Positions 1 through 17,970 of a stretch of DNA of 17,970 nucleotides are shown piece after piece (within the stretch, counting starts at the first letter, position 1; each line of letters opens with the position of its first letter). The translations under genes were made by a program, and so were the position numbers. The stretch is from JALSIF01 sp026981635 [NCBI: bacterium] (GTDB lineage Bacteria > 4484-113 > JALSIF01): NCBI GenBank assembly GCA_026981635.1, contig JALSIF010000164.1:1-17970 (forward strand). Reading direction: 5' to 3'. The notes under the pieces were generated by a model. It searched no databases, was not told where the DNA came from, and saw nothing but the letters and a program-made list of their open reading frames with translations.

Positions 1-239
1 ATAAGGTCACCGGAGTGGGGGTGCGCATCCAGGTCAAGGGGAGACTCAACGGCGCCGAGATGAGGCGCAAGGAGTGGTACCACTGGGGCAGGGTTCCCCT
101 GCAGACACTTAGGGCAAAGATTGACTACGCCCAGGCCACCGCCTACTGCTCCTATGGCACCATCGGGGTCAAGGTGTGGATCTACACCGGCGATGAGGTC
201 AAGGAAAAGGAAGGCCAGGCGGTAGGGGAGGTTTCGTGA
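1..239 (+). CDS. rpsC: 30S ribosomal protein S3, C-terminal fragment
   Basis: Partial gene cut by the left window edge; the reading frame is open from base 3, leaving 78 codons before the TGA. The residues match the C-terminal domain of bacterial S3: a [12 protein letters not shown] segment, then [19 protein letters not shown] and [11 protein letters not shown], which are highly conserved in the family. S3 sits at the mRNA entry site of the small subunit head and, with S4 and S5, helps the ribosome unwind mRNA. The fragment ends in a short Glu/Lys-rich tail ([16 protein letters not shown]). It is followed after one base by rplP in the junction TGAGATG, the usual S3-L16 order of the S10 operon. 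The identity is secure; the true start lies outside the window. Confidence 0.97.
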
Positions 240-240
240 G

Positions 241-657
241 ATGGTTCTGATGCCCAAAAAGACCAAGTGGCGCAAGTCCCAGCGCGGCCGGATGAAGGGG
301 AAGGCCTACCGCGGCTCAAACATTGACTTTGGCAACTTTGGCCTGATTGCGGTGGAGCCGGGCTGGATCACCGGGCGCCAGATTGAGGCGGCCCGCATCG
401 CCATGAACCGGGTGATCCGCAAGGTGGGCAAATACTGGATCCGCATCTTTCCTGACAAGCCCTACACCAAGAAGCCCCTGGAGACCCGCATGGGCAAGGG
501 CAAGGGCAATGTGGAGGGCTATGTGGCGGTGGTGCGGCCGGGACGGGTGCTGTTTGAGGTTGAGGTGCCAAACGAGGCCATCGCCCGCCGCGCCCTGCGC
601 CGGGCGGCCATGAAGCTGCCCATCAAGACCAAGTTCATCGCCAAGGAGCCCTTCTGA
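241..657 (+). CDS. rplP: 50S ribosomal protein L16
   Basis: 138 aa, the normal family length. The N-terminus [20 protein letters not shown] and the blocks [44 protein letters not shown] and [21 protein letters not shown] are typical of bacterial L16. L16 binds 23S rRNA near the A-site tRNA elbow and helps shape the peptidyl-transferase centre. The start at 241 was chosen because L16 begins just before the MPK motif and a purine-rich GGGGAGG lies at about 224-230. A second in-frame ATG at 250 would remove only three residues. The gene lies one base after the rpsC stop and one base before rpmC, so translation is probably coupled on both sides. Confidence 0.97.
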
Positions 658-658
658 G

Positions 659-904
659 ATGGCAAGCAGAAAGGCCAAGGAGTTTGCCAAGCTGAGCATC
701 AAGGAGCTGGAGGAGCGCCTGCGCGAGCTTCGCGCTGAGCTCTTCAACCTGCGCTTCCAGAAGTACACCGGCAGCCTGCACAACTACCGCAGACTGAGGG
801 AGGTGCGGCGCGACATCGCCCGGGTGCTCACCATCCTCACCCAGAAGCGCCGGGAGCTGGAGGAGCTTAAGCAGGCAGATGAAAAGTCGCCCGAGCAGGG
901 ATAG
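659..904 (+). CDS. rpmC: 50S ribosomal protein L29
   Basis: 81 aa, slightly longer than the usual 60-75 aa. The core has the typical two-helix pattern: LSIKELEERLRELRAELFNLRFQK followed by NYRRLREVRRDIARVLTILTQKRRE, matching the family motif in which an N-terminal Lx-E-L helix leads to LRFQ and then the RxxRxxIARxxT helix. L29 sits at the exit of the nascent-peptide tunnel next to L23 and contributes to the docking site for SRP and trigger factor. The C-terminus adds a short charged tail (KQADEKSPEQG). It starts one base after the rplP stop and precedes rpsQ, the usual L16-L29-S17 order. Its TAG stop lies at the start of a short ATAG tandem. Confidence 0.96.
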   Translation: MASRKAKEFAKLSIKELEERLRELRAELFNLRFQKYTGSLHNYRRLREVRRDIARVLTILTQKRRELEELKQADEKSPEQG

Positions 905-912
905 ATAGATAG
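901..912 (+). repeat. ATAG x3 tandem at the end of rpmC
   Basis: Three perfect copies of ATAG span the rpmC stop codon and the start of the 30-base gap before rpsQ. The unit creates in-frame stops on successive frames. No function is evident; it may simply be a small slippage repeat. The remainder of the gap holds the GGAG ribosome-binding sequence at 921-924. Confidence 0.6.
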
Positions 913-934
913 TTATTTCGGGAGATAGGTGACC

Positions 935-1456
935 ATGGCGCGCAAGACCAAAGTGGGAGTAGTGGTGTCCAACAAGATGGACAAGTCGGTGGTGGTCAGG
1001 GTGGAGTTTCGCCGCCGCCACCCCCTCTACAAGAAGGTGGTGCGCCGGTTCTCCAAGTTCATGGCCCATGACGAGAACAATGAGTGTCAGATCGGCGACC
1101 TGGTCCGCATCGTGGAGACCAGGCCGCTCTCCAAGCGCAAGCGCTGGATGGTGGAGGAGATCCTGGAGAAGGCGGTCCACCCCGAGGTGAAGGTGGAGCC
1201 GCTGGAGCAGGAGGCCCAGGTGGAGGAAGAGGAGGTGGCCGAGGTGCTGGGCCACGTAGGGGAGGGGGAGACGGATATCCAGGCAGCGGAGGAAGCCAGC
1301 CAGCAGACCGAGGCCGGGGCGGGGGAGCCCGTTGAGGTCCCGGCCGAGGGCGAGGGAGAGGATGAGGTGGAGGTTGCGGTTGAGTTTGAAGAGCAGGAGA
1401 GCGGCAGTGGCGACCAGGTGGATGATGAAGAGCCCCCCGAGGAGAAACAGTCATGA
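935..1456 (+). CDS. rpsQ: 30S ribosomal protein S17 with a long acidic C-terminal extension
   Basis: 173 aa, twice the normal length of about 85. Residues 1-82 are a standard S17 core: [21 protein letters not shown] at the start, then [25 protein letters not shown] and [18 protein letters not shown]17 is a primary 16S rRNA binder of the OB fold in the body of the small subunit. Residues from about 83 to 173 form a low-complexity tail very rich in Glu, with Gly, Ala, Val and Gln, and no recognisable domain. I chose ATG 935 over GTG 929 because the family begins M-x-R-K and because GGAG at 921-924 is 10 bases upstream. The TGA overlaps the rplN ATG by four bases (ATGA), so the tail is genuinely translated up to the coupling site and is not a missed stop. 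The tail is the odd feature; the core assignment is secure. Confidence 0.95.
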
Positions 1457-1824
1457 TCCGGCAGGAGACCAGGCTCAAGGTGGCCGACAACTCGGGCGCG
1501 CGGGAGATCCTTACCATCCGCATCCTGGGCCGCTCCACCAGTCCGGTGGGTAGTGTGGGCGACATCATCGTCGCCACCGTCAAGCAGGCCTCCCCCCGCG
1601 CCCAGATCAAGAAGGGGGATGTGGTCTTTGCGGTCATCGTCCGCACCCGGGCGCCCATCCGGCGGCGGGACGGGACGGTAGTCCGCTTTGACGACAATGC
1701 GGCGGTGATCATTGACCCCTCCACCCGCTCCCCCAAGGGAACCCGGGTGTTTGGGCCGGTGGCCCGCGAGCTTCGCCAGAAGGGATTCATGAAGATCGTC
1801 TCGCTTGCCCCGGAGGTGCTCTGA
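1453..1824 (+). CDS. rplN: 50S ribosomal protein L14
   Basis: 123 aa, full family length (122-123). Conserved blocks run throughout: [18 protein letters not shown] at the N-terminus, [44 protein letters not shown] and the C-terminal [13 protein letters not shown] followed by [12 protein letters not shown]14 is a beta-barrel protein on the subunit interface that forms intersubunit bridges with 16S rRNA and is the docking point for the silencing factor RsfS. The ATG overlaps the rpsQ TGA by four bases, indicating translational coupling. It ends one base before the rplX ATG in another TGAGATG junction. Confidence 0.98.
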
Positions 1825-1825
1825 G

Positions 1826-2194
1826 ATGGCGAGGAAGGCGAAGAAGAAGGCCAAGGGAGCAGACCGTAGAGTCCCCAAGCTGAATGTGAAGCGGGGGGAC
1901 ACGGTGCTCATCATTGCCGGTGACGACAAGGGCAAGCGGGGCAAGGTGCTTGAGGTCTACCCGCGCGAGCAGAAGGTGCTGGTGGAGGGGATAAACATGG
2001 TCAAGAAGCACGTGCAGCCCACCCAGTTTGGGGAGGAGGGCCACGTGATTGACAAGCCGATGCCCATCCACGTCTCCAACGTGATGGTGATCTGCCCGGT
2101 GACCGGCAAGCCGGGCAAGGTCTACCGCAAGTTTGTGGACGGCAGGTGGCGCCGCTTCCACAAGGTGAGCGGGGAGCTGCTGGACAAGGACTGA
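1826..2194 (+). CDS. rplX: 50S ribosomal protein L24
   Basis: 122 aa. The KOW motif is clear in the first third (LNVKRGDTVLIIAGDDKGKRGKVLEVYP), followed by VLVEGINMVKKHVQP and the region HVSNVMVICPVTGKPGKVYRKF, as in bacterial L24. L24 is one of the two 23S rRNA proteins that start large-subunit assembly and lies at the tunnel exit. The start at 1826 was preferred over an earlier in-frame start inside rplN because it gives the TGAGATG junction seen at other gene borders here and removes an unconserved leader. The N-terminus is Lys-rich (RKAKKKAKGADRR), a little longer than in common homologues. The gap to rplE is 12 bases. Confidence 0.96.
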   Translation: MARKAKKKAKGADRRVPKLNVKRGDTVLIIAGDDKGKRGKVLEVYPREQKVLVEGINMVKKHVQPTQFGEEGHVIDKPMPIHVSNVMVICPVTGKPGKVYRKFVDGRWRRFHKVSGELLDKD

Positions 2195-2206
2195 GGTGAC
2201 CCGACG

Positions 2207-2776
2207 ATGATGAAGTCGCCGCTACAGGTTGAGTGGGAGGAGAAGCTTCGCCAGGAGCTGTTTGAGGAGCTCGGCTACAAGAACATCATGCAGGTTCCCC
2301 GGCTGGTAAAGATCGTCCTAAACGCCGGCATCGGCGAGGGCAAGACCGACCCGCGCCAGATTGACAACGCGGTAAAGACCCTGACCATGATCTCGGGGCA
2401 AAAGGCGGTGGTCACCCGGGCCAAGAAGTCCATCGCCGGTTTTAAGCTTCGGGCGGGTAACCCCATCGGGGTGAAGGTGACTCTCAGGGGCAAGCTCATG
2501 TGGCACTTCCTCTACAAGCTTATCCACGTGGTCCTGCCCCGCACCCGCGACTTTCAAGGGGTGTCGGTGAGGTCCTTTGACGGGCAGGGCAACTTCTCCA
2601 TCGGCCTGGCCGACCAGCTGGTCTTCCCCGAGATCAGCTTTGACGAGGCCCAGTTCATCCACGGGCTGCAGGTGACCATCGTCACCACCGCCAAGAACGA
2701 CCTGGAGGCGGCCTACCTTCTGCATAAGCTGGGCATGCCCTTTAACGACTTTGAGCCGGCTAGGAAGGTGGCCTGA
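2207..2776 (+). CDS. rplE: 50S ribosomal protein L5
   Basis: 189 aa; the family is usually about 179-187. Hallmarks: ELGYKNIMQVPRLVKIVLNAGIGEG near the start, GQKAVVTRAKKSIAGFKLRAGNPIGVKVTLRG in the middle, and LPRTRDFQGVS, FDGQGNFSIGLADQLVFPEI and MGMP-like GMPF at the end. L5 binds 5S rRNA with L18 (and L25 in some lineages) and contacts P-site tRNA. TGAGGTGA at 2192-2199, overlapping the rplX stop, is the ribosome-binding sequence seven bases before the ATG. Two adjacent ATG codons occur; the first was taken. rplE is followed by rpsN after 13 bases. Confidence 0.97.
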   Translation: MMKSPLQVEWEEKLRQELFEELGYKNIMQVPRLVKIVLNAGIGEGKTDPRQIDNAVKTLTMISGQKAVVTRAKKSIAGFKLRAGNPIGVKVTLRGKLMWHFLYKLIHVVLPRTRDFQGVSVRSFDGQGNFSIGLADQLVFPEISFDEAQFIHGLQVTIVTTAKNDLEAAYLLHKLGMPFNDFEPARKVA

Positions 2777-2789
2777 GGGGTGATCAAGG

Positions 2790-2978
2790 ATGGCTAAGAA
2801 GTGCAAGATCGTAAAGGACATGATGAAACCGCCCAAGTTCTCCACCCGGCGCAAGAACCGGTGTAGAATTACCGGCCGCCCGCGGGGCTATATCCGCTAC
2901 TTTGGCGTCTGTCGGGTGAAGTTTAGGGAGCTGGCCCTGGCGGGCAAACTCCCTGGAGTGCGCAAGGCAAGCTGGTAG
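2790..2978 (+). CDS. rpsN: 30S ribosomal protein S14, short type with incomplete zinc site
   Basis: 62 aa, the length of the short zinc-ribbon type of S14 (61 aa), ending in the diagnostic [10 protein letters not shown]14 assembles late into the head of the small subunit. In the usual short form four cysteines in two C-x2-C pairs bind zinc. Here each pair has kept only its first cysteine: C25-R-I-T28 and C41-R-V-K44. The fold around them ([22 protein letters not shown]) otherwise follows the family closely, so the protein is very likely functional without normal zinc coordination. An extra cysteine at position 5 is not a standard ligand. The gene lies between rplE and rpsH as in most bacteria. 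Identity is secure; loss of zinc binding is inference. Confidence 0.96.
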
Positions 2979-2983
2979 GAGCC

Positions 2984-3406
2984 ATGGTTAGAACTGACCC
3001 AATCGCTGACTTCATCACCATCATCCGAAACGGGGTGATGGCCCGCAAGGAGTGGGTGCTCACCGAAAACTCGCGCATCCTGAGGGAGATCGCCAAGATC
3101 TTAAAGCGCGAGGGATATATTGCCGACTGGGAGGTGGTGCCCGACGAGCGGCGCCACGCCATGAAGGGGGGCACCCGGCTAAAGATCCACCTAAAGTATG
3201 TGGACCCCGAGAGGCGCAAGTCGCCCCTGCAGGGGATTAGAAGGGTGAGCAAGCCGGGCCGGCGGATCTATGCGGGGGCCGACGAGATCCCCAGCACCCT
3301 TAACGGCCTCGGCATCACCATCCTCACCACCAGCAAGGGACTGAAGACCGACCGCGAGGCGCGCCGTGAGCACATCGGCGGCGAGATCATGATCCAGGTC
3401 TGGTAG
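2984..3406 (+). CDS. rpsH: 30S ribosomal protein S8
   Basis: 140 aa; bacterial S8 is usually 130-138. The start [17 protein letters not shown] is nearly invariant in the family, as is the C-terminal half: [40 protein letters not shown] and [12 protein letters not shown]8 binds helix 21 of 16S rRNA early in assembly and, in E. coli, represses the spc operon by binding its own mRNA. I did not identify such a target site here. The segment [27 protein letters not shown] differs somewhat from the common V-x-x-P-x-S-K motif. GGAG lies just before the ATG and only five bases separate it from rpsN. Confidence 0.97.
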
Positions 3407-3408
3407 CC

Positions 3409-3957
3409 ATGAGCAGGATAGGCAGACTACCGGTTGAGATCCCCTCCGGTGTGGAGGTCAAGGTGGAGGGGCGCACCATCACGGTGAAGGGACCCAAGGG
3501 GGAGCTCTCCTACACCGTCCCCGAACCGATTGAGTTTACGGTGGAGGAGGGGCGCATCACCTTTACCCGGCCAAACGACCGCCCCAAGGTGCGCGCCCTG
3601 CACGGCACCGCCCGGGCCATCACCAACAACATGGTAATCGGCGTAACCCAGGGCTTTAAGAAGGAGCTTGAGGTGCGCGGGGTGGGGTATAGGGCCCAGA
3701 AGAAGGGAAACACCCTGGTCCTTCAGGTGGGCTTTTCCCACCCGGTGGAGATTGAGATCCCCAAGGAGAGCGGGGTGGAGTTTTCCCTGGAGGGAAACCG
3801 CATCATCCTTACCGGCATTGACAAGCACCTGGTGGGTCACTACGCCGCCCTGATCCGCAAGGTGAGGCCCCCCGAGCCCTACAAGGGCAAGGGGATCAGA
3901 TATGTGGGCGAGTACGTGCGCCAGAAGGCGGGCAAGGCGGCGGCCACCGGTGCCTAG
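3409..3957 (+). CDS. rplF: 50S ribosomal protein L6
   Basis: 182 aa, normal length (176-182). The N-terminal domain starts [21 protein letters not shown] and includes [15 protein letters not shown]; the second domain carries [24 protein letters not shown] and the C-terminal [25 protein letters not shown]6 is a two-domain protein near the sarcin-ricin loop, beside the GTPase-factor binding site. It begins two bases after the rpsH stop with little Shine-Dalgarno sequence, so it probably depends on coupling to rpsH. A 41-base gap separates it from rplR. Confidence 0.98.
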
Positions 3958-3998
3958 CCGGGTAGGAATGGCAGTGAGCTTTGAGGAGTGGGCTTAGG

Positions 3999-4367
3999 AT
4001 GGCAAGGATCAAGAACCGAAGGTTTGGCCGGCTGATCCGCCACAAGCGGATCCGCAAGAAGATCTCGGGTACCCCCGAGGTCCCGCGGCTGGCGGTGTTT
4101 AAGAGCCTGCGCCACATCCACGCCCAGATCATTGACGATACAAAGGGCCACACCCTGGTCTCCGCCTCCAGCGTGGAGCGGGAGCTCCGCCCCAAGATGG
4201 AGGGCAAGAGCAAGACCGAGCAGGCCAAGCTGGTGGGCGAGATCATCGCCGAGCGGGCGCTGGCCAAGGGGATCACCCAGGTGGTCTTTGACCGCGGCGG
4301 GAGCAAGTATCACGGCCGGGTCAAGGCGCTGGCCGAGGCGGCCCGGGAGAAGGGGCTAAAGTTCTAG
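3999..4367 (+). CDS. rplR: 50S ribosomal protein L18
   Basis: 122 aa, typical of bacterial L18 (about 117-122). The Arg/Lys-rich N-terminus ([21 protein letters not shown]) precedes [43 protein letters not shown] and [26 protein letters not shown], the standard L18 ending. L18 binds 5S rRNA and joins it to the large subunit with L5. The ATG at 3999 is preferred over TTG 3981, which would add six unconserved residues; TGAGGAG at 3982-3988 then serves as the ribosome-binding sequence, with a rather long spacer. Placed between rplF and rpsE as in most spc operons. Confidence 0.97.
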
Positions 4368-4380
4368 CGAGGTAGCACCC

Positions 4381-5121
4381 ATGGGAATGGAAAGGCAGAC
4401 AGGTTTTGCACCCTCACCAGAGCAGGAGCTGCAGGAGGAGGTCATCTTCATCAACCGAGTGGCCAAAGTGGTCAAGGGAGGCCGTCGCTTCAGCTTTACT
4501 GCCCTGGTGGTGGTGGGTGACCGCAGGGACCGGGTTGGTCTGGGCTACGGCCGGGGAAGCGAGGTGACCATCGCCATCCAGAAGGCGGTGCAGGACGCCA
4601 AGCGAAACATGATCAAGGTGGTCAAGAACAAGCAGGGCAACACCGTCCCCTACGAGCTTAGGCACAAGTACTGCGCCTCGCGGGTGATCATCAAGCCGGC
4701 CCGGCCGGGAACCGGGGTGATCGCCGGCGGTCCCGCCCGGCCCATCTTTGCCCTGGCCGGGATTCAGGATGTGACCTGCAAGTATCACGGTTCCAACAAC
4801 CCCATCAACTGTGCCCGGGTGGTATTTGAGGCGCTGAAAAGCTACCGCCACCCCAAGGAGATCCTCGCCTGGCGGCGGGCGGAGCCCCAGAAGCTCAGCG
4901 TGATGGAGGTAATTGAGCAGAAGCACAGGGAGATCAGGAGCCAGCTGAGGGAACTTGAGGGCATCCCGCCGGAGATGGCCGAGGGGGAGGACGTGGAGAC
5001 CCAGGAGGCCATCGCCGAGGCGGAGATGGCGGAGGTGGAAGGACAGGGCGAGGCCGAGGTTCCGGAGGAGGCTGAGGCTGTCCCCCAGGAGGGGGAGACC
5101 CCGGAGGCTGAGGAGGAGTAG
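4381..5121 (+). CDS. rpsE: 30S ribosomal protein S5 with an acidic C-terminal extension
   Basis: 246 aa, against about 165 for most bacterial S5. Residues 20-170 are a standard S5: EEVIFINRVAKVVKGGRRFSFTALVVVGD (double-stranded RNA-binding half), then GSEVTIAIQKAVQDAKRNM and RPGTGVIAGGPARPIFALAGIQDV followed by KYHGSNNPINCARVVFEAL. S5 stands at the mRNA entry channel and affects decoding accuracy. Within the core the usual G-K-A before the EV strand is changed to GRG. Residues about 171-195 look like a charged helix, and 196-246 are a Glu-rich low-complexity tail. The TAG is only three bases before the rplO ATG; rpmD (L30), which normally follows rpsE, is absent. Confidence 0.96.
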   Translation: MGMERQTGFAPSPEQELQEEVIFINRVAKVVKGGRRFSFTALVVVGDRRDRVGLGYGRGSEVTIAIQKAVQDAKRNMIKVVKNKQGNTVPYELRHKYCASRVIIKPARPGTGVIAGGPARPIFALAGIQDVTCKYHGSNNPINCARVVFEALKSYRHPKEILAWRRAEPQKLSVMEVIEQKHREIRSQLRELEGIPPEMAEGEDVETQEAIAEAEMAEVEGQGEAEVPEEAEAVPQEGETPEAEEE

Positions 5122-5124
5122 GCG

Positions 5125-5574: not shown

Positions 5575-5598
5575 CTATTCTGATAGGCGGGGCATGAC

Positions 5599-6933
5599 AT
5601 GGCCACACTAGCAGCCACCCAGGAGATCGCCCAGGCGGTCCGCTCTCCCGAGCTACTCAAGCGAGTCTACTTCACCCTAGGGGCGATTGCCATCTACGTG
5701 CTGGTTAACTACATCCCCACCCCGGGGGTTGACCCGACCGCCATCCAGCAGTTCATCCAGAGTGCGGGAGCAGGTAACCTGCTTGGCATTTTTAACCTCT
5801 TCGTGGGGGGGGGGCTGGCCCGCCTCTCGGTGCTCGCCCTGGGCATCATGCCCTACATCAACGCCTCCATCATGCTCCAGGTCCTCTCCGCGGTCTATCC
5901 CGAGCTTCGGGAGATGCAGCAGGAGGGAGATCTGGGACGGCGCCAGTACGCCCGCATTACCCGTCTGCTAACCGTATTTCTCGCTGCCCTGCAGGCGGGC
6001 GGTCTGATGATTGCCCTACTGCAGACGGTAGAGCCCACCGTGGAGCGCACCGGCGGTTTCTGGCTGGGCATGGTGGTGGCTTTCCTTTCCCTGGTGGCGG
6101 GCGCCATGTTCATGATGTGGCTGGGGGAGGAGATCACCAAGCACGGCATCGGAAACGGGGTTTCTCTGCTCATCTTCATCGGCATCATTCAGAACTTGCC
6201 GGTCCAGCTCTCGGGAGAGTTTCAGGCGGTGGCGGCCGACCCGCGCCGCGCCCTTCCTCTGGGGATTCTCTTCTTCTCACTCTTTGCCATCACCGTGGGG
6301 GCAGTCTTCATCACCCTGGCAGTGAGAAAGGTCCCCGTTCACTACCCGAGGAAGCAGGTGGCAGGCCGACTGGTGGGTGGCCAAGCCTCCTTCCTACCCA
6401 TCAAGATGGCCCAGGCGGGCGTCATCCCGATCATCTTTGCCATTGCGGTGAGGATGTTTCCCTCAACCTTGACATTAATTCCCTCTCTGCGCCCTACCGA
6501 GAATGAGCTAATGCTAAGCTTTATGACTTTTTGGAATAACTTCTGGTTTGAGGTTATTAGTACCTTCCTGCTGGTAGTTTTCTTCACCTTCATCTATACT
6601 GCCATCATCTTTAACACCCAGGAGATCGCCAAGAACCTCCAGCGCCAGGGTGGGTTTATCCCCGGCATCCAGCCGGGGCGAAAGACATTTGAATACCTAG
6701 ACAAGATCCTATTTCGGGTGACCTTTTTTGGTTCCATTGCCTTGGGGCTCATCACCATCTTGCCCTCGGTTCTTAGGGAGGCTACTGGCATTCAGACCCT
6801 ATTCATCTCGGGTATTGGGCTTCTCATCATCGTGGGTGTCGCCATTGATACCCTGCAGCAGCTTGCCGCCCACATGGTGATGCGTCGCTACACCGGGTTC
6901 AGGCGCACTGCCACCCGGGTCAGGTACCGCTGA
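5599..6933 (+). CDS. secY: Protein translocase subunit SecY
   Basis: 444 aa, about ten predicted membrane segments, forming the protein-conducting channel of the Sec pathway with SecE and SecG. Family marks in order: an N-terminal amphipathic stretch (EIAQAVRSPELLKRVYFTLG), YIPTPGVDP, the plug region GIFNLFVGGGLARLSVLALGIMPYINASIMLQ, EGDLGRRQYARITRLLTV, MMWLGEEITKHGIGNGVSLLIF, the cytosolic KVPVHYPRKQVAGR loop, PIKMAQAGVIPIIFA, the NLQRQGGFIPGIQPGRKT loop that contacts ribosome and SecA, and the C-terminal GFRRTATRVRYR. The codons for VGGG sit in a run of ten G at 5805-5814. The 3' half is clearly more AT-rich than the neighbouring genes. It lies between rplO and adk as in Gram-positive bacteria; secE and secG are not in the window. 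Confidence 0.98.
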   Translation: MATLAATQEIAQAVRSPELLKRVYFTLGAIAIYVLVNYIPTPGVDPTAIQQFIQSAGAGNLLGIFNLFVGGGLARLSVLALGIMPYINASIMLQVLSAVYPELREMQQEGDLGRRQYARITRLLTVFLAALQAGGLMIALLQTVEPTVERTGGFWLGMVVAFLSLVAGAMFMMWLGEEITKHGIGNGVSLLIFIGIIQNLPVQLSGEFQAVAADPRRALPLGILFFSLFAITVGAVFITLAVRKVPVHYPRKQVAGRLVGGQASFLPIKMAQAGVIPIIFAIAVRMFPSTLTLIPSLRPTENELMLSFMTFWNNFWFEVISTFLLVVFFTFIYTAIIFNTQEIAKNLQRQGGFIPGIQPGRKTFEYLDKILFRVTFFGSIALGLITILPSVLREATGIQTLFISGIGLLIIVGVAIDTLQQLAAHMVMRRYTGFRRTATRVRYR

Positions 6934-6938
6934 TCCCC

Positions 6939-8388: not shown

Positions 8389-8399
8389 GAGAAGGCAAA

Positions 8400-8627: not shown

Positions 8628-8654
8628 ATCCGAGGGTAGAGAGGAAGTTAGCCC

Positions 8655-8771: not shown

Positions 8772-8781
8772 GAGGTAGGGT

Positions 8782-9168: not shown

Positions 9169-9226
9169 TCTCACCCTGAGCGGGAACCAAATCTAGGTAC
9201 GGGAGAGCGGTCAGGAGGATAGAGCA

Positions 9227-9625: not shown

Positions 9626-9645
9626 GGATGGGAGGAGCGTAGCCT

Positions 9646-10278
9646 ATGGTTGACCTCAGAGGACCAGTCTGCAAGTACAGCCGCGCCTTCGGGCGCAAGG
9701 TGGACAACAAGCCCCCCCACAAGGACCCCCTCTCGCGGCGCCCCTACCCGCCGGGACCGCGCCGGCGGCGCAAGCGCCTCTCCGACTACGGCAAGCACCT
9801 GCGTGAGGTGCAGATCGCCCGCTTCATCTACCGCATCTACGAGAAGCAGTTTCGGCGCTACTTCCTGGAGGCCAAGCGCTCACCGGGCCGCACCGACGTT
9901 GAGCTGGTGAGGCTGCTTGAGCGGCGGCTGGACAACGTGATCTACAAGGCCGGCTTTGCGGTCACCCGCCGCCAGGCCAGGCAGCTGGTGGTCCACCGCC
10001 ACTTTGAGGTCAAGCGGGGCGACCACGACTGGCGCTGTGTGGATCGGCCCAGCTTCCAGGTCAGGGTGGGGGACCGCATCCGGGTCAAGCCCTCCAAGCG
10101 GGAGAAGGAGTATTTCCAGCTGGTTAGGGAGGAGGTTACCCCCCTCAAGGAGGAATATTGGCTAAGCGTGGACCCGGAGGTGATGGAGATAGAGGTCACT
10201 GCACTTCCCGAGCCGCGGGAGGAGGAGCTGGCCTTTGACCCCGCCATGATCGTGGAGTACTACTCCAAGTACGTCTAG
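9646..10278 (+). CDS. rpsD: 30S ribosomal protein S4, zinc-free type with an altered S4-domain loop
   Basis: 210 aa, normal for S4 (about 200-210). It begins MVDLRGPVCKYSRAFG: only one cysteine of the N-terminal zinc cluster found in some S4 proteins is present, so this is the zinc-free type. The S4 RNA-binding domain is clear at about residues 92-155 (RLLERRLDNVIYKAGFAVTRRQARQLVVH), but the usual H-G-H-I-x-V-N-G loop is replaced by H-R-H-F-E-V-K-R-G-D-H-D-W-R-C-V-D before the PSF strand, which is a few residues longer. The C-terminus ends IVEYYSKYV, typical of the family. S4 starts 16S rRNA 5'-domain assembly and in E. coli represses the alpha operon; no target site was identified here. rpoA follows after 22 bases. 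Confidence 0.96.
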   Translation: MVDLRGPVCKYSRAFGRKVDNKPPHKDPLSRRPYPPGPRRRRKRLSDYGKHLREVQIARFIYRIYEKQFRRYFLEAKRSPGRTDVELVRLLERRLDNVIYKAGFAVTRRQARQLVVHRHFEVKRGDHDWRCVDRPSFQVRVGDRIRVKPSKREKEYFQLVREEVTPLKEEYWLSVDPEVMEIEVTALPEPREEELAFDPAMIVEYYSKYV

Positions 10279-10282
10279 TCGA

Positions 10283-10290
10283 AAGGAGGT
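10283..10290 (+). promoter_or_regulatory. Strong ribosome-binding site of rpoA
   Basis: AAGGAGGT, the full complement of the 16S rRNA 3' end, lies 10 bases before the rpoA ATG at 10301. It is the strongest such sequence in the window and confirms that the organism uses the standard anti-Shine-Dalgarno. One of only two TCGA tetramers in the window abuts it at 10279-10282. Confidence 0.7.
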
Positions 10291-10300
10291 CTTTTCTGCT

Positions 10301-11287: not shown

Positions 11288-11317
11288 GATAACCCTGACT
11301 GAGCGGGGAGATTTGCC

Positions 11318-11731: not shown

Positions 11732-11736
11732 ACGCC

Positions 11737-12540: not shown

Positions 12541-12958
12541 GTGGTACACGCGGGAGCGGGTTGAGCCGCAGTGGTATGTGGTGGATGCGGCCGGGAAAAG
12601 ACTTGGCCGGCTGGCCACCGAGGTGGCCAAGCTCCTCATCGGCAAGCACAAGCCCCACTACACCCCGGGCCAGCTGGTGGGCGACTTCGTCATCGTGGTC
12701 AACTGCGACAAGGTGGTGGTCACCGGCAAGAAGGAGACCGACAAGATCTACTACCGCCACTCGGGCTACCCGGGAGGGCTAAAGGCGCTTAGCTTTAGGG
12801 AGATGATGCAGCGCGACCCCAGGAAGGTGATCCGGCTGGCGGTAAAGGGGATGCTGCCCAAGAACCGCCTGCGGGACAGGCTGATGAGCCGGCTCAAGGT
12901 CTACGCCGGGCCTCACCATCCCCACCAGGCGCAAAAGCCCACTCCCTGGGAGGTATAA
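12527..12958 (+). CDS. rplM: 50S ribosomal protein L13
   Basis: 143 aa, normal length. The N-terminal [36 protein letters not shown], the middle [35 protein letters not shown] and the C-terminal [33 protein letters not shown] are all characteristic. L13 is an early assembly protein of the large subunit. ATG 12527 was chosen over an upstream in-frame start at 12488 because the usual protein starts M-K-T-x-x near W-Y-V-x-D; it overlaps truA by 14 bases, with GAGG at 12514-12517 upstream. rplM-rpsI form the usual L13-S9 pair. Confidence 0.97.
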
Positions 12959-12968
12959 GATTTAGGCG

Positions 12969-13367
12969 ATGAGCACCATAGAGCTGCAAAAGATAACCGT
13001 CGGGCGCCGCAAGCGGGCGGTGGCGAGGGTGATCCTGCGCCCGGGAAGCGGGCAGATCTTCATCAACGGCAAGCCCCTCGCCGACTACTTCCCCCAGGTC
13101 CCCGCCCAGCTTGAGGTGCTGGAGCCGCTCAGGCTCCTGGGGGTGGAAAACGAGTACGACGTCATCGCCAACGTCAGGGGGGGCGGCTGGCACGGCCAGG
13201 CGGGGGCGGTGAAACTGGGCATTGCCCGCTACCTGGTTTACCTTGACCCCTCGGTCAAGCCCAAGCTTCGCCAGCATGGCCTGCTCACCCGCGACCCGCG
13301 GGAGAAGGAGCGCAAGAAGTACGGGCACCTCAGGGCCCGCAAGAAGCCCCAGTACCACAAGCGGTAG
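12969..13367 (+). CDS. rpsI: 30S ribosomal protein S9
   Basis: 132 aa, normal length (about 130). Marks: VGRRKRAVARVILRPGSGQIFINGKPLADYF at the start, VRGGGWHGQAGAVKLGIARYLV in the middle, and the basic C-terminus LLTRDPREKERKKYGHLRARKKPQYHKR. The final KR reaches the P-site tRNA anticodon stem in known ribosomes. The usual ending is F-S-K-R; here it is Y-H-K-R. It follows rplM by ten bases and ends the ribosomal part of the window. The 65-base region after it has no convincing terminator. Confidence 0.98.
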   Translation: MSTIELQKITVGRRKRAVARVILRPGSGQIFINGKPLADYFPQVPAQLEVLEPLRLLGVENEYDVIANVRGGGWHGQAGAVKLGIARYLVYLDPSVKPKLRQHGLLTRDPREKERKKYGHLRARKKPQYHKR

Positions 13368-13432
13368 TCGCTCCTCCCGCCCGCAGGCAGAGGATGCCTC
13401 GTTGCTAAGATGGGCCGGGGGCCGCTTTGCCC
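13368..13432 (+). other. Gap between rpsI and cdaA
   Basis: Sixty-five GC-rich bases. I see a weak stem (GGCA/TGCC with a five-base loop, about 13386-13398) but no T-run after it, and no recognisable -35/-10 pair. Transcription from the ribosomal operon may therefore continue into cdaA. A run of five G at 13417-13421 is the only Shine-Dalgarno-like sequence. Confidence 0.4.
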
Positions 13433-14299
13433 ATGCAAGAGAGCCTGACCAATCTCCTGCCCGGCGCCATCAACCCGTGGCTCTTTCTGCTGGACCTTCT
13501 CCTGGTCTGGATCCTCTACTACTACTTGATTCTCTTTGTGCGCGGGACCCGGGCGGTGATCATCCTCATCGGCATCGGCACCATCGCCCTGCTCTATGTG
13601 GTGGTGAGCTGGCTGGACCTGGTTACCACCCGCTGGCTACTGGAAAAGTTTTTTGCCTATGGTTCCATTGCCCTGATCGTCATCTTTGCCCCCGAGATCC
13701 GTGACTACCTGGCCGAGATCGGGCGCCGGAGCATGGTGCTTCCCTTCCGCGCCCTGGCCCGCCGCACCCGGGAGGAGCGAGAGGAGGAGGAGCTGCCCGA
13801 GCTCTTGGGCTCGGTGGTAAAGGCATGCACCCAGCTTGCCGCCACCAAGACTGGGGCGATCATCGCCCTGGAGCGCCGCAAGCCCATCCAGCTTGACCAG
13901 ATGATCGTGGGGGAGGAGCTGGATGCGCTGGTCACCGAGCGGCTTTTGATGGCCATCTTTGACAAGCACTCTCCCCTCCACGACGGCGGGGTGGTGATTA
14001 CCGACAGCCGCATCCGCTACGTAAACTGCTACTTCCACCTCTCCGAGAATCCCCTGCTTGACCCCTACCTGGGCAGCCGCCACCGGGCGGCGGTGGGGGT
14101 GACCGAGGACTCCGACGCGGTAGCGGTGGTGGTGAGTGAGGAGACCGGCCAGATCAGCATCGCGGTAAACGGACGTCTCGCCCGGGGGCTCACCCCCGAG
14201 GAGGCGCTGGAGCAGCTTGAGGTGCTGTTTGACCTCACCCACTCACGGGCCACTGAGCTGCCCCCGGTTGAGACGGGTAGGCTGGTTCCCGAGGGGTAG
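13433..14299 (+). CDS. cdaA: Diadenylate cyclase CdaA, membrane-bound
   Basis: 288 aa. CdaA condenses two ATP into the second messenger c-di-AMP at the membrane. Three N-terminal membrane segments are visible at about residues 16-36, 40-60 and 68-86, then a charged coiled segment (RRTREEREEEELPEL) and the DAC (DisA_N) domain. The catalytic motifs are present: HDGG at about 183-186 (the family usually has D-G-A) and GSRHRAA at 214-220, with LHDGGVVITDSRI and AVGVTEDSDAVAVVVSEETGQIS around them. The start is ATG 13433 or TTG 13427, two codons apart. Potassium and cell-wall homeostasis are the usual c-di-AMP outputs. Its partners cdaR and glmM follow directly. Confidence 0.94.
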   Translation: MQESLTNLLPGAINPWLFLLDLLLVWILYYYLILFVRGTRAVIILIGIGTIALLYVVVSWLDLVTTRWLLEKFFAYGSIALIVIFAPEIRDYLAEIGRRSMVLPFRALARRTREEREEEELPELLGSVVKACTQLAATKTGAIIALERRKPIQLDQMIVGEELDALVTERLLMAIFDKHSPLHDGGVVITDSRIRYVNCYFHLSENPLLDPYLGSRHRAAVGVTEDSDAVAVVVSEETGQISIAVNGRLARGLTPEEALEQLEVLFDLTHSRATELPPVETGRLVPEG

Positions 14300-14305
14300 G
14301 TTGAG

Positions 14306-15541
14306 ATGGGTAGCTGGCTCAGATTCTCCCTGTTTAAGAACCTGGAGCTCAAGCTCATCTCCTTTGTGCTTGCCCTGGCCACGGTACTCATCGTTCACTT
14401 CTCCTTTAGGAGCCTCTACCCCATGAGCGTGCAGGCCAAGGTGGAGGTGAGGAACCTGGCCGAGAACCTGGTGGTGGCCAACCGGGAGGAGATCCCGGAG
14501 ACGGTAAACCTGGGATTGCAGGTCCCCCTCCAGCTTGCCGACACCATCCGCAACCGCTCCTTTACTGCCCTGCTGAATCTTTCCGGCTTTGATCTTCCCG
14601 GCACCTACTCGGTCCCCTACGAGTTTCCCGACCTCACCCCCGGGGTGGTGGTCACCTCCCGCCCGCGGCCGGCGCGGGTGAGGCTGGAGCGGGTGGCCAG
14701 CCGGGTGGTGGAGGCAAAGCCGCTGGAGCTTGGCGCCCTGCCCGGCTCCCTGGTCCTGGGCAAGACCTCACTGGAGCCGGAGCTGGTCAAAGTCTCGGGG
14801 CCAGAATCAGTGGTGGAGCGGGTGAGGCAGGCGGTGGTGGAGGTCAGGCTCTCCGAGCTCTACTCCAGCCAGGAGCTAAGGCTGCCGGTGATGGTGGAGC
14901 TTGATGATGGGCAGCGCTACCCCCCCAGCCGCCTCTCCATGACCGTGGTTCCCGCTGAGGTCACCTACCGGGTGGAGGTAAGAAACCAGGAAGATCTTCT
15001 GGTGCTCAACGTCACCCCCGAGCTTCGCGGGGAGGTGCCGGCCGGCTACCGCATTGAGCGCATCACCATTGAGCCGCGGGAGGTGCTGGTGCCGGTGAGG
15101 CTGCTTGGGGGAAAGGAGGTCTATGAGCTTAGGACCGACCCGGTTGACCTCTCCGAACGGCGGGAGAGTTTTGAGGCCAAGGTGAGGATAAACTACCCCT
15201 TCCCCCCCGAGGCGGGACTGCCCCGCTATGCCCGGGTGTCGGTGACCATAAAGCAGCTGGTCACCGGTGAGCTTACTGCGGTGAGGGTCAAGCCCGAGCT
15301 GGTGGGGGCCGACCCGGAGCGGTTCAGCTATGAGCTCCAGACCCAGGAGGTGGAGGTCTACCTGCCCCCCGGGATGGAGCAGGTTGACCAGAGCGAGCTT
15401 AGGGTGGTGGTGGATGTCTCGGGTCTTACCGAGGGGGAGCACCGCCTTCCCCCGGAGCCCCTGCTGGGCAGCGAGCAGGTGGCCTGGGAGGTGAGGCCCC
15501 GGCTGGTCAGGGTGAGGATCAGCAAGAAGGAAGGTGATTAG
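14306..15541 (+). CDS. cdaR: YbbR-repeat protein, CdaA regulator type
   Basis: 411 aa. One N-terminal membrane anchor (about residues 15-34, LKLISFVLALATVLIVHFSF) is followed by an extracytoplasmic part of roughly four YbbR-like beta-rich repeats, about 40-130, 130-215, 215-315 and 315-405. Recurring strands of the type V-x-V-x-P-x-x-V-x-V-x-G-P/R are visible, such as LEPELVKVSGPESVVERV and ITIEPREVLVPVRLLGG. In Firmicutes this protein binds CdaA and modulates c-di-AMP production. The gene lies six bases after cdaA and its stop is one base before the glmM ATG, so the three are surely co-translated. Repeat boundaries are approximate. The name rests on context as well as sequence. Confidence 0.85.
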   Translation: MGSWLRFSLFKNLELKLISFVLALATVLIVHFSFRSLYPMSVQAKVEVRNLAENLVVANREEIPETVNLGLQVPLQLADTIRNRSFTALLNLSGFDLPGTYSVPYEFPDLTPGVVVTSRPRPARVRLERVASRVVEAKPLELGALPGSLVLGKTSLEPELVKVSGPESVVERVRQAVVEVRLSELYSSQELRLPVMVELDDGQRYPPSRLSMTVVPAEVTYRVEVRNQEDLLVLNVTPELRGEVPAGYRIERITIEPREVLVPVRLLGGKEVYELRTDPVDLSERRESFEAKVRINYPFPPEAGLPRYARVSVTIKQLVTGELTAVRVKPELVGADPERFSYELQTQEVEVYLPPGMEQVDQSELRVVVDVSGLTEGEHRLPPEPLLGSEQVAWEVRPRLVRVRISKKEGD

Positions 15542-15542
15542 C

Positions 15543-16907
15543 ATGGCTAGGCTGTTTGGAACCGACGGCATCCGCGGGGTGGCGGGGCGTGACCTCTACC
15601 CCGAGCTGGTCTGCCGCATCGGGCAGGCGGCGGCCCGGGTTCTGCTGGACCCCGCCTCCAACGGGGAGCAGACGGTGATCATCGGCCGCGACAGCCGGCT
15701 TAGCGGGGAGATGCTGGTGAGTGCGCTGACGGCCTCCTTCCTGCTGGAGGACTACACGGTGTGGGAGGTGGGGATCCTGCCCACCCCGGTGCTGGCCTTC
15801 CTCACCCGCAAGTATCCGGTCACCTGCGGGGTGATGGTGACGGCCAGCCACAACCCGGTCAGGGACAACGGGATCAAGTTCTTCCGCACCGACGGCTTTA
15901 AGCTCTCCCCCGAGCAGGAGGCGGCCATTGAGGAGCTGGTGAGGGAGGGGAAGCTAAGCTTTGAGGACGGGCGGGTGAGCTTCGGCAAGGTGCTTGGCCG
16001 CCACGACCTGATCAACGACTACCGGGAGGTGATTCGCGACCACGCCGGCATCGCCCCCCTGCAGAAGAAGGTGAAGGTGGTGCTGGACTGCGCCTTTGGG
16101 GCCTGCGCCGAGCTTGCCCCGCGCATCTTTACCGAGTGGGGGGCGGACCTCATCGCCATCGGCGACCGCTTTGACGGCGCACGGATCAATGTGGAGTGTG
16201 GCGCCACCCACCCCGAGCGGGTGGCCGAGGAGGTGGTGAGACACGGAGCCGACCTGGGGTTCGCCTTTGACGGCGACGGCGACCGAGTGATCGCGGTGGA
16301 CCACGAGGGCCGGGTGGTGGACGGCGACCTGATTATTGCCCTGCTGGCTGAGCGGGTCCCCCGCTACGCCAACCAGCGGATGGTGGTGGTCACCCAGATG
16401 TCCAACCTGGGGATGGAGGCATATCTAGCCGGCAAGGGCTACCGGGTGGAGCGCACCGGGGTGGGGGACATGAAGGTGCTTGCCCGGATGAAGGAGATCG
16501 GTGCCGACCTGGGGGGCGAGCAGTCGGGCCACATAATTCTTCGCGACATCACCACCACCGGCGACGGGACGCTGGTGGCGCTGATTGTGGCAAGCCTGGT
16601 AGTGGAGAGCGGGAGACCCCTAAGAGAGCTGGTCTCCCACATCCCCCTCTATCCCCAGCGTCTCACCAACCTGCCCCTGGCCGACCACCGGGGCTGGAGG
16701 GAGGACGAGGAGTTCATGGGGCGCCTTTCCGCCCTGGAGGAGGAGATCAGAGGCCGCGGCGGCAGAATCTTCGTGCGCCCCAGTGGCACCGAGCCCAAGG
16801 TGCGCATCCTGGTGGAGGCGGAGGATCCGGCGGTGGTGGAGGAGTTTTCCCAGCGGGCAAGGGAGCTCTTCCTTAGCTGGGAGAAGAAGCGGGCCCAATC
16901 GGGTTAG
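15543..16907 (+). CDS. glmM: Phosphoglucosamine mutase
   Basis: 454 aa, normal length (about 445-455). It converts glucosamine-6-phosphate to glucosamine-1-phosphate for UDP-GlcNAc and peptidoglycan. Signature parts: LFGTDGIRGVAG at the start; active-site TASHNP with the phosphorylated Ser at 102; the Mg loop DGDGDR with the first Asp at 243; the sugar loop GGEQSGH around 324-330; and the phosphate-binding RPSGTEPKVR starting at R412. ATG 15543 was chosen over GTG 15534, which overlaps cdaR; AGGAAGGTGA at 15528-15537 lies just upstream. In other bacteria CdaA and GlmM bind each other, which suits the gene order here. Confidence 0.97.
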   Translation: MARLFGTDGIRGVAGRDLYPELVCRIGQAAARVLLDPASNGEQTVIIGRDSRLSGEMLVSALTASFLLEDYTVWEVGILPTPVLAFLTRKYPVTCGVMVTASHNPVRDNGIKFFRTDGFKLSPEQEAAIEELVREGKLSFEDGRVSFGKVLGRHDLINDYREVIRDHAGIAPLQKKVKVVLDCAFGACAELAPRIFTEWGADLIAIGDRFDGARINVECGATHPERVAEEVVRHGADLGFAFDGDGDRVIAVDHEGRVVDGDLIIALLAERVPRYANQRMVVVTQMSNLGMEAYLAGKGYRVERTGVGDMKVLARMKEIGADLGGEQSGHIILRDITTTGDGTLVALIVASLVVESGRPLRELVSHIPLYPQRLTNLPLADHRGWREDEEFMGRLSALEEEIRGRGGRIFVRPSGTEPKVRILVEAEDPAVVEEFSQRARELFLSWEKKRAQSG

Positions 16908-16923
16908 CTGGCCGGCCTGGGCC
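16892..16923 (+). terminator. Weak hairpin across the glmM stop (uncertain)
   Basis: GGCCCA (16892-16897) and TGGGCC (16918-16923) are perfect inverted repeats separated by 20 bases, with a self-complementary GGCCGGCC in the loop. No clean T-run follows; the next bases are TATACTC. It could be a poor intrinsic terminator for the preceding operon or mere chance in GC-rich DNA. Confidence 0.2.
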
Positions 16924-16935
16924 TATACTCATAGG
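16922..16935 (+). promoter_or_regulatory. Possible -10 element and small palindrome before the UPF0173 gene
   Basis: The 59-base gap between glmM and the next gene contains TATACT (16924-16929), close to a -10 consensus, inside a perfect inverted repeat CCTAT-actc-ATAGG (16922-16935). The start codon is 37 bases downstream of TATACT. The -35 position shows only GGGTTA, a poor match, so a promoter is suggested but not established. Confidence 0.3.
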
Positions 16936-16966
16936 GTCTGGGGAAATCTTTCTTGGGAGGCAAGCG

Positions 16967-17686
16967 ATGGCGAAACACAAGCTCACCTTTCTGGGCCATG
17001 CGGCCTGGCGGCTCACCACTGCCGAGGGCAAGGTGATCATCTTTGATCCCTTCCTCACCCCCAACCCCCTCACCCCGGAGGGGGAGAAGAGGCAGACCCG
17101 TTGCGATGTGATGGCCCTGACCCATGGCCACATTGATCATACTTCCGATGCCCTGCAGGTCTACCGCGAGACTGGGTGCAAGATCGTGTCCATCATTGAG
17201 CTTTGCACCATTCTGCAGAAGATGGGAGTGAAGGAAGAAGACCTCCTACCTGCCAATACTGGGGGGACAGTGGAGGTTGAGGGAATCAAGTTCATTTTGG
17301 TGCCTGCCTGTCATTCAAGCTCAACCCAGTTTGATGAGAGGCTCGAATACGCAGGAAAGCCACTTGGCTTTGTGGTTGAGCTACCCGACGGGCTTACCAT
17401 CTACAACTCGGGAGACACCTGGATCTTTGAGGAGATGAAGTACATAAAGCGCCTCTGGCGTCCCACCATTGGAATTCTCTGCATTGGTGGTCACTTCACC
17501 ATGGACGCCAAGGCGGCAGCATTGGCAGCAAAGGAGCTGCTTGAACTAAAGACGGTAATCTGCCAGCACTACGGCACCTTCCCCGTCCTCACCGACACGC
17601 CAGATGATCTGAGGCGGGAGCTTGAGGGAAGTGGGATTGAGGTGCTTTCTCCCCAGCCGGGCGAGACCATAGAGATCGGCGAGTAG
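16967..17686 (+). CDS. UPF0173 metal-dependent hydrolase (metallo-beta-lactamase fold)
   Basis: 239 aa, near the family's usual 225-235. The fold is recognised from KLTFLGHAAWRL and IIFDPFLTPNP at the N-terminus, the metal motif THGHIDHTSD, the further ligand His in PACHSSS, TIYNSGDTW and the C-terminal QHYGTFPVL. A notable change is IGGHFTM where most members have G-D before x-F-T-M. The physiological substrate of UPF0173 proteins is not established. GGGAGG at 16955-16960 is the ribosome-binding site. A 59-base gap with a possible promoter separates it from glmM, so it may be a separate transcription unit. The middle of the gene (about 17160-17390) uses fewer GC-ending codons than the ribosomal genes and holds one of the two TCGA tetramers of the window. 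Confidence 0.9.
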   Translation: MAKHKLTFLGHAAWRLTTAEGKVIIFDPFLTPNPLTPEGEKRQTRCDVMALTHGHIDHTSDALQVYRETGCKIVSIIELCTILQKMGVKEEDLLPANTGGTVEVEGIKFILVPACHSSSTQFDERLEYAGKPLGFVVELPDGLTIYNSGDTWIFEEMKYIKRLWRPTIGILCIGGHFTMDAKAAALAAKELLELKTVICQHYGTFPVLTDTPDDLRRELEGSGIEVLSPQPGETIEIGE

Positions 17687-17693
17687 CGGGCCC

Positions 17694-17970
17694 TTGTCAG
17701 CCCAGCAAGAGCCGGTCCGCTTCGGGTTCGTAATCCACCCGGTCTACACCCGCCAGCTGCTGGGCCACCCTATGCTTCGGCTGGTGGGGCGGGTGCTCGC
17801 CGACGGGGTGCTGGAGCGGGTGGCGGCCCTTTTGCCCTCCATCGTGGCGGGGGAGGTGAGGGGGGTAAGAAGCCCCCTGGGTCCAACCGCCCACGGCTAC
17901 CTCTACGGCCTGCCGGTGACCGGGCGGCTGATGCTTGCCCGCCCCCCCCCGTGGACCTACCGGAAGCTTG
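17694..17970 (+). CDS. N-terminal fragment of a probable COG5322-type dehydrogenase/acyl-ACP reductase
   Basis: Open frame of 92 codons running off the right edge. From TTG 17694 it reads LSAQQEPVRFGFVIHPVYTRQLL, then VGRVLADGVLERVAALLPS, VRGVRSPLGPTAHGYLYGLPVTGRLML and PPPWTYRKL. The pattern F-x-F-V-I-H-P ... G-V-R-S-P-x-G ... G-x-P-x-T-x-R-x-M-L ... R-K recalls, from memory, the N-terminus of COG5322 proteins (predicted amino acid dehydrogenases related to fatty acyl-ACP reductases); the NAD(P)-binding part would lie beyond the window. The start codon is uncertain: the Shine-Dalgarno sequence is weak and no ATG precedes the conserved part. A run of nine C at 17942-17950 encodes Pro-Pro-Pro in a frame that stays consistent with the family pattern. 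Confidence 0.55.
   Translation, partial: MSAQQEPVRFGFVIHPVYTRQLLGHPMLRLVGRVLADGVLERVAALLPSIVAGEVRGVRSPLGPTAHGYLYGLPVTGRLMLARPPPWTYRKL

What the first reader, a model, noticed from the sequence alone, without database searches (positions are those of the whole stretch)
1..17970. TCGA is almost absent from the whole window
Reading the + strand line by line I found only two TCGA tetramers (10279-10282, between rpsD and rpoA, and 17343-17346 in the UPF0173 gene). At about 60-65% GC a random sequence of this length would hold roughly 60. The related palindrome GATC is abundant, so this is not general palindrome avoidance. The coding shows the mechanism: Ile, Phe, Leu and Val before Asp/Glu are written ATT, TTT, CTT or GTT (giving TTGA), whereas before other codons ATC and GTC are common. 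This dinucleotide-context codon choice runs through every gene. It fits long-term avoidance of a TaqI-type restriction site, or decay of methylated TCGA to TTGA/TCAA by deamination. TaqI-like systems are known in thermophiles, but no such gene is in this window.
Basis: partly seen in the sequence, partly recalled or inferred. Interest (0 to 1): 0.72.

Follow-up and report, generated by a model that had tools for sequence, protein, structure and literature searches.

The report
Near-erasure of TCGA across a genome
An uncultured bacterium has lost almost every copy of the four-letter DNA word TCGA, and the pattern of replacements looks more like chemical decay of a methylated C into T than like the usual removal of sites cut by a restriction enzyme.

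Summary
The window holds 2 TCGA (10279, 17343) against 30.6 expected from its own trinucleotides. The depletion is genome-wide: 89 against 1006 in about 507 kb, the lowest of all 256 tetramers. Nine same-class relatives are normal (O/E 0.77-1.51). No TaqI-type, C5-methyltransferase, N6_Mtase or Eco57I family is found in the 85%-complete assembly. Two beta-class methyltransferases exist, one beside a DpnII-type endonuclease, but their relatives mostly do not go with TCGA loss.

Depletion is 39-fold in xTC|GA and 12-fold (calibrated) in TCG|A, where C->T is silent, but 3-fold in xxT|CGA, where it gives a stop or Gln. Lost GTC and CTC became GTT and CTT, with the C+T pool conserved, as a C->T decay model predicts. 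Three other TCGA-poor sequence sets shrink that pool instead. Best explanation: deamination of T-5mC-GA, by a C5-methyltransferase now lost or unassembled. Methylation itself was not observed.

The parts
1..17970 (.). TCGA-depleted stretch (ribosomal protein operons, secY, adk, rpoA, to cdaA, glmM and UPF0173), 2 TCGA against 30.6 expected
   Evidence: gene names
10279..10282 (.). Residual TCGA directly after the rpsD stop, joined to a Shine-Dalgarno-like stretch before rpoA (GTCGAAAGGAGGT); the same string occurs at L005:5784
17343..17346 (.). Residual TCGA in the UPF0173 metal-dependent hydrolase gene (16967-17686), frame xTC|GA
5599..6933 (+). secY, used to find relatives of the same class and their homologous regions

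Best explanation
TCGA was erased mainly by mutation, not by selection against a cutting site. I infer that the C of TCGA was, or is, methylated at C5 on both strands by a TCGA-specific cytosine methyltransferase. 5-methylcytosine deaminates to T, so TCGA became TTGA or TCAA at a C->T rate that a simple model puts at 60-240 times that of the same codon position elsewhere. Where this change is silent the word is almost gone; where it would make a stop or an Arg->Gln change, purifying selection has kept about a third. Shown: the depletion, its genome-wide reach, its absence in nine same-class relatives, its frame dependence and the C->T replacement pattern. Inferred: C5 methylation, the enzyme, and that it is lost or in the missing 15% of the assembly.
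For: Strict ORFs (282 of 440): xTC|GA 26/1011 (0.026), xxT|CGA 11/32.7 (0.34); TCG|A 5 of 58.5 expected after calibration on CCG, ACG and GCG before A (0.085), 5 of 191.5 without it. P that xxT|CGA shares the xTC|GA depletion is 1.7e-9, or 1.7e-6 with a doubled baseline as seen in two control families. xxT|CGA has two silent transition escapes (T->C, A->G), so selection should empty it too. Before GA, GTC falls 0.107->0.005 and GTT rises 0.085->0.228 while GTG and GTA do not rise; Leu likewise. A four-state model predicts GTT 0.187 and CTT 0.288 under C->T decay at every transition bias tried, and 0.095 and 0.187 under selection; observed 0.228 and 0.305. The largest gain where TCG|A was lost is TCA (183 against 131 expected). 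C+T pool odds ratios before GA (Val, Leu) are 1.28 and 1.08 here; 1.30/1.19, 0.97/1.10 and 0.68/0.74 in same-class families; 0.31/0.39 in Thermus pTT27, 0.48/0.30 in G149, 0.29/0.63 in TCGA-poor Elusimicrobia-type loci. Precedent: PMC10423294 (passages) reports loss of the m5C motif ACGT in H. pylori by deamination, mostly silent and biased to the second frame.
Against: No PF00145 C5-methyltransferase in the assembly. No methylation data. Compared with TCG|A instead of xTC|GA, the frame contrast is weaker: P = 1.6e-4, or 0.028 with a doubled baseline; it rests on 11 strict sites. T-versus-A/G controls inside this genome are high in two other contexts (Val 3.83 before CA and 3.1 before TA, Leu 1.51 in both; 1.05 and 0.71 before AA), perhaps through partial TGCA and GTAC avoidance, so the codon shift alone is not decisive. 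Ile ATA before GA (0.177) lies between the decay (0.107) and selection (0.418) predictions. Outside ORFs, where decay should be freest, 20 TCGA remain of 55.1 expected, 9 of them not in tRNA genes. All 14 tRNA T-loops keep TTCGA although 2 of 4 in other phyla's loci have TTCAA. CAA share after T is raised here (0.168 against 0.094) but also in pTT27 (0.382 against 0.23), so it does not discriminate.
Confidence: 0.6

Rival explanations
1. Classical restriction avoidance: a TCGA-cutting Type II system (TaqI-like, or another with an m6A enzyme) was long resident and selected against TCGA; its genes are now lost or lie in the unassembled part.
For: Avoidance of Type II sites, including traces of lost systems, is widespread (PMC4687349, passages). 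TCGA is strongly avoided in H. pylori, which methylates it with m6A (PMC7379913 and PMC3936762, passages). The Thermus HB8 plasmid has TCGA 276 against 472 expected. Six other of 385 genomes have a TCGA:AGCT ratio as low, up to 0.026 (read off by eye).
Against: Does not explain the roughly 13-fold weaker depletion of xxT|CGA than of xTC|GA, about 6-fold with a doubled baseline, or the shift of GTC/CTC to GTT/CTT. Searched R-M families absent.
Confidence: 0.3
2. One of the two resident beta-class systems does it: the C275 methyltransferase with its DpnII-type endonuclease, or the orphan CcrM-like methyltransferase on C157, recognises TCGA.
For: They are the only DNA methyltransferases found with the families searched; H. 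pylori M.HpyAX for TCGA is also beta-class.
Against: Of 17 other genomes with relatives of the endonuclease (some partial), 15 have TCGA O/E 0.57-1.14, including the four closest (47-51% identity); G149 (0.03) and G194 (0.29) are exceptions. Of the six genomes holding the C157 enzyme's closest relatives (52-59%), five have TCGA:AGCT 0.35-1.46 and one 0.10. Both carry DPPY, which by recall is the adenine-type motif.
Confidence: 0.08
3. A compositional or codon-pair effect unrelated to any DNA-level target.
For: GTAC, CTAG, CGCG and TGCA are also low (0.50-0.55).
Against: TCGA (0.088) is more than five times lower than the next tetramer after trinucleotide correction, is low in all frames and outside ORFs, and is low whatever the third base of the next codon (0.022-0.069).
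Confidence: 0.02

Closest known systems
Deamination-driven loss of the m5C motif ACGT in Helicobacter pylori (PMC10423294, passages read)
   Same: Palindromic CpG tetramer lost towards the two deaminated forms, mostly as silent changes, biased to the second codon frame.
   Different: There the methyltransferase is known and loss is population-specific; here the word is TCGA, nearly erased, and no C5-methyltransferase is found.
TCGA avoidance in H. pylori with solitary beta-class m6A methyltransferase M.HpyAX (PMC3936762, PMC7379913, passages read)
   Same: Same tetramer, strong genome-wide scarcity.
   Different: m6A enzyme known there; no TCGA enzyme identified here; the replacement signature of H. 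pylori was not examined.
TaqI / TthHB8I systems of Thermus
   Same: Target TCGA; plasmid pTT27 of strain HB8 is TCGA-poor (276/472). That HB8 carries TthHB8I is recalled.
   Different: Far weaker depletion; the C+T pool before GA shrinks; the families PF09573 and PF12950 are absent here.
Traces of lost R-M systems (PMC4687349, passages read)
   Same: A depleted site without its system in the genome.
   Different: That study deals with avoidance; the words deamination and methylcytosine had 0 hits in its main text.

Membership tests
TaqI-type restriction-modification | RE_TaqI endonuclease (PF09573) | tested here: not met
   0 matches in own genome, control Thermus composti rings; assembly 85% complete
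TaqI-type restriction-modification | TaqI-type gamma methyltransferase (PF12950, PF02384, PF07669) | tested here: not met
   0 matches each
TaqI-type restriction-modification | TCGA scarcity reached equally by every silent route | tested here: not met
   xxT|CGA 0.34 against 0.026 in xTC|GA and 0.085 in TCG|A
C5-methylation decay of a CpG motif | Lost sites replaced by the C->T form on either strand | tested here: met
   with the internal-control caveat
C5-methylation decay of a CpG motif | Depletion weak where C->T is not silent | tested here: met
   11 of 32.7 expected
C5-methylation decay of a CpG motif | Depletion strongest outside genes | tested here: inconclusive
   20 of 55.1 expected, 9 outside tRNA genes, in 35 kb that includes short or broken ORFs
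C5-methylation decay of a CpG motif | C5-methyltransferase gene (PF00145) | tested here: not met
   0 matches in own genome; 10 of 14 control genomes ring
C5-methylation decay of a CpG motif | 5-methylcytosine at TCGA | not testable with these tools
   no reads or methylation data
DpnII-type R-M (C275) | DpnII endonuclease beside a DNA methyltransferase | tested here: met
   PF04556 E 2.6e-73, PF01555 E 1e-61
DpnII-type R-M (C275) | TCGA specificity | tested here: inconclusive
   relatives' genomes not TCGA-poor in 15 of 17; specificity itself not measured
HpyAX-like solitary TCGA methyltransferase (C157 gene) | Beta-class methyltransferase without endonuclease, specific for TCGA | tested here: inconclusive
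   PF01555 and CcrM-like; genomes of its closest relatives mostly not TCGA-poor; HpyAX sequence not at hand

The most novel reading that the evidence does not exclude
A TCGA-specific cytosine modification or deamination system, not represented by the families searched, mutated its own target across the whole genome until almost none was left: a self-erasing mark recognisable from codon frames alone, without any methylation data.
Probability: 0.3. Interest if true: 0.65.

Novelty: new variant of a known kind. Interest (0 to 1): 0.45.

Why it matters
Missing restriction-site words are usually read as selection by a restriction enzyme. Here a frame-and-replacement test, applied to assembled sequence alone, separates mutational decay from selection and sorts four TCGA-poor sequence sets into two kinds. 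If it holds up, many 'avoided' sites could be re-sorted, and lost cytosine methyltransferases could be inferred from genomes that no longer carry them.

Tried and rejected
Considered and set aside: chance or composition. DpnII-type system as cause. CcrM-like orphan as cause. Hi-C or digest artefact: codon choice itself is shifted, so the word is truly absent. m4C decay: a reference title seen reports C-to-A at a cytosine-N4 site, not C->T; that paper was not held. Paralogue mismatch test: only 3 pairs, 1007 bases, no TCGA difference, uninformative. CAA-share test did not discriminate. A first Markov-by-frame script stopped on a division by zero; its TCGA line is used only as support. Expectations from AA/CA contexts gave unstable values, I think because TGCA and GTAC are themselves low; I used the GC/GG/GT contexts instead, and cite only for Ile and for codon shares in relatives. 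Named relatives: the first genome-contig scan with rpoA found none; the second, with a secY alignment, did. Paper searches; one search gave one irrelevant paper for Elusimicrobi-, restriction and TCGA together.

Full report
Observation. The window holds TCGA twice, at 10279 and 17343. Expectation is 60.8 from base composition and 30.6 from trinucleotides, O/E 0.065. The genome, a 1.745 Mb assembly in 317 contigs, 85% complete, shows the same. I fetched 80 contigs; 19 were wholly N and were dropped. The other 61 plus the window (about 507 kb) hold 89 TCGA against 1006 expected, the lowest of 256 tetramers, the next being GTAC at 0.50. In the whole assembly SNSTCGASNS occurs 23 times and its backwards control SNSAGCTSNS 945 times. 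No sequence is an island of normal TCGA: 43 of 62 hold at least one site, none more than five.

Lineage. The assembly has no relative closer than its class in the searched set. Nine same-class relatives have TCGA O/E 0.77 to 1.51 in 18-57 kb each, so depletion probably arose on this branch. Their secY proteins are about half identical to this one. Among named records the nearest by secY are MAGs labelled 'bacterium' or 'Planctomycetales bacterium'. In 385 genomes across the domain, seven including this one have TCGA:AGCT at or below 0.026 with a control count of 60 or more (G000, G030, G072, G149, G167, G286, G314; read off the table by eye, and without correction for composition). TCGA scarcity of this order looks rare but recurrent.

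Enzymes. Own-genome searches found no C5-methyltransferase (PF00145), TaqI_C (PF12950), RE_TaqI (PF09573), N6_Mtase (PF02384) or Eco57I (PF07669). D12-type methyltransferases were not searched for. PF01555 gave two genes: one at C275:622-1551 followed by a DpnII-family endonuclease at 1594-2487, and a CcrM-like orphan on C157. Relatives of the endonuclease occur in 17 other genomes of 385, some only in part; in 15 of these TCGA O/E is 0.57-1.14 in the stretches read, the exceptions being G149 (0.03) and G194 (0.29), while GATC O/E runs from 0.15 to 1.02. I read that system as GATC-type by family and do not think it is the cause. The orphan's closest relatives (52-59% identity; G160, G187, G006, G003, G112, G042) sit in genomes with TCGA:AGCT of 1.46, 0.97, 0.35, 0.52, 0.10 and 0.78. 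It is probably not TCGA-specific, though its specificity was not measured.

Frames. TCGA can fall in three codon frames. In xTC|GA, C->T on the coding strand is silent. In TCG|A, C->T on the other strand is silent (TCA). In xxT|CGA, C->T gives a TGA stop or CAA (Gln), but two other transitions are silent (xxT->xxC for most codons, CGA->CGG). Selection against the word should empty all three; decay of the C should spare the third. In 282 strict ORFs of 440 the counts are 26/1011 (0.026), 5/191.5 (0.026) and 11/32.7 (0.34); calibrating TCG|A on CCG, ACG and GCG before A lowers its expectation to 58.5, giving 0.085. With all 440 ORFs they are 39/1401, 12/97 (calibrated) and 17/54, with bootstrap ranges 0.019-0.037, 0.054-0.199 and 0.147-0.474. 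A codon-model check of the residual sites agreed with the ORF frame for 34, 9 and 13 sites; 9 disagreed, 8 lay in no ORF and 16 were set aside as tRNA. The third frame's baseline is 2.06, 1.86 and 0.84 in the three same-class families. Against xTC|GA the third frame differs with P = 1.7e-9, or 1.7e-6 with a doubled baseline; against calibrated TCG|A, 1.6e-4 or 0.028.

Replacements. Before GA the C-ending codons fall from 0.107 to 0.005 (GTC), 0.119 to 0.004 (CTC), 0.761 to 0.020 (ATC) and 0.455 to 0.006 (TTC), compared with other G-starting codons. In the Val and Leu boxes the loss goes to T: GTT 0.085->0.228, CTT 0.153->0.286, with GTG, GTA, CTG and CTA not rising. A reversible four-state model with C->T raised predicts GTT 0.187 and CTT 0.288 at each transition bias tried (1 to 8), needing a 60-240-fold rate; selection predicts 0.095 and 0.187. 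Where TCG|A is lost, TCA gains most (183 against 131 expected), TCC (727 against 706) and TCT (83 against 71) less.

Comparators. Three other TCGA-poor sequence sets behave differently: Thermus thermophilus HB8 plasmid pTT27 (NC_006462), G149 (40 kb), and 18 of 31 Elusimicrobia-type loci chosen for O/E below 0.25 (27 of the 31 bear Elusimicrobia or Parendomicrobium titles, 4 are titled 'uncultured bacterium' and were put there by me from their place in the hit list). In these the C+T pool before GA shrinks: odds ratios for Val and Leu 0.31/0.39, 0.48/0.30 and 0.29/0.63, against 1.28/1.08 here and 0.68-1.30 in the same-class families. Third-frame counts are 1/13.5 in G149, 1/12.8 in the Elusimicrobia-type loci, and 41/55 in pTT27 against 192/535 in its first frame, so pTT27 too keeps more in the third frame, by a factor of two. 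In the Elusimicrobia-type loci TCG|A goes to TCC (443 against 282), hardly to TCA (51 against 44), uncalibrated. These sets look like selection; this genome looks like decay.

Against. In this genome T also gains on A/G-ending Val codons before CA and TA (odds ratios 3.83 and 3.1; Leu 1.51 in both), although not before AA (1.05; Leu 0.71). GTG|CA makes TGCA and GTG|TAC makes GTAC, both moderately scarce, which may explain it, but the codon shift alone is not proof. Ile ATA is intermediate. Outside ORFs of 120 codons the count is 20 against 55, 9 after tRNA sites are set aside, one of these tRNA-like and some in short ORFs. All 14 tRNA T-loops keep TTCGA, which neither model explains simply. 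No C5-methyltransferase is seen.

Judgement. I put 0.6 on decay of a methylated cytosine, 0.3 on classical avoidance by a lost or unassembled system, 0.08 on a resident beta-class enzyme. TCGA scarcity as such is known in H. pylori (PMC7379913), and deamination of an m5C tetramer is known for ACGT there (PMC10423294). New here, as far as the searches listed show, is near-erasure of TCGA with a decay signature and no enzyme in sight. By contrast PMC10333322 (passages) reports that hypermutation alone could not explain motif depletion in the Bacteroides fragilis group.

Noticed in passing
L207, L233, L258, L219, L221, L263 and 12 further Elusimicrobia-type loci around secY: Elusimicrobia-type genomes, many from gut samples by title, are widely TCGA-poor: 18 of 31 loci have O/E below 0.25 (six with 0 or 1 site), with a selection-like replacement pattern; L251 is normal (97/77).
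   Followed up: partly
L054 (G000:C275) 622-2487: Two-gene DpnII-type R-M locus in a genome where GATC is only mildly scarce (0.80), perhaps a recent arrival.
   Followed up: partly
L063 (G000:C157) about 14447-15322, minus strand: Orphan CcrM-like beta-class methyltransferase that matches CcrM only to residue 259 of 366; close relatives (56%) in same-class genomes G003 and G006.
   Followed up: partly
G149 (L109, L183): TCGA 2/61, GGCC 8/57, CTAG 6/55, GTAC 18/65: several palindromes scarce at once in one genome.
   Followed up: no
L104, L121 (G104): ACGT 0/34 and 1/13, CTAG 0/37 and 3/37: near absence of two other palindromes.
   Followed up: no
L114 (G194): GCGC 1/36 with TCGA 13/46 and CATG 14/56.
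   Followed up: no
L257: GTAC 0 of 22 expected, with GATC 10/53 and CTAG 4/32, in a record titled Parendomicrobium.
   Followed up: no
window 10271-10290 and L005:5776-5795: Identical GTCGAAAGGAGGT, Shine-Dalgarno-like, keeps TCGA at two loci.
   Followed up: no
G000 tRNA genes in the fetched contigs: 14 of 14 T-loops keep TTCGA; 15 of the 89 residual sites overlap tRNA genes, 16 with one more that I judged tRNA-like.
   Followed up: partly
G003, G006, G009 (same class): Mild TCGA and clear GATC shortage (GATC 0.33-0.50), with GTC before GA lower and GTG higher than before other G-starting codons.
   Followed up: no
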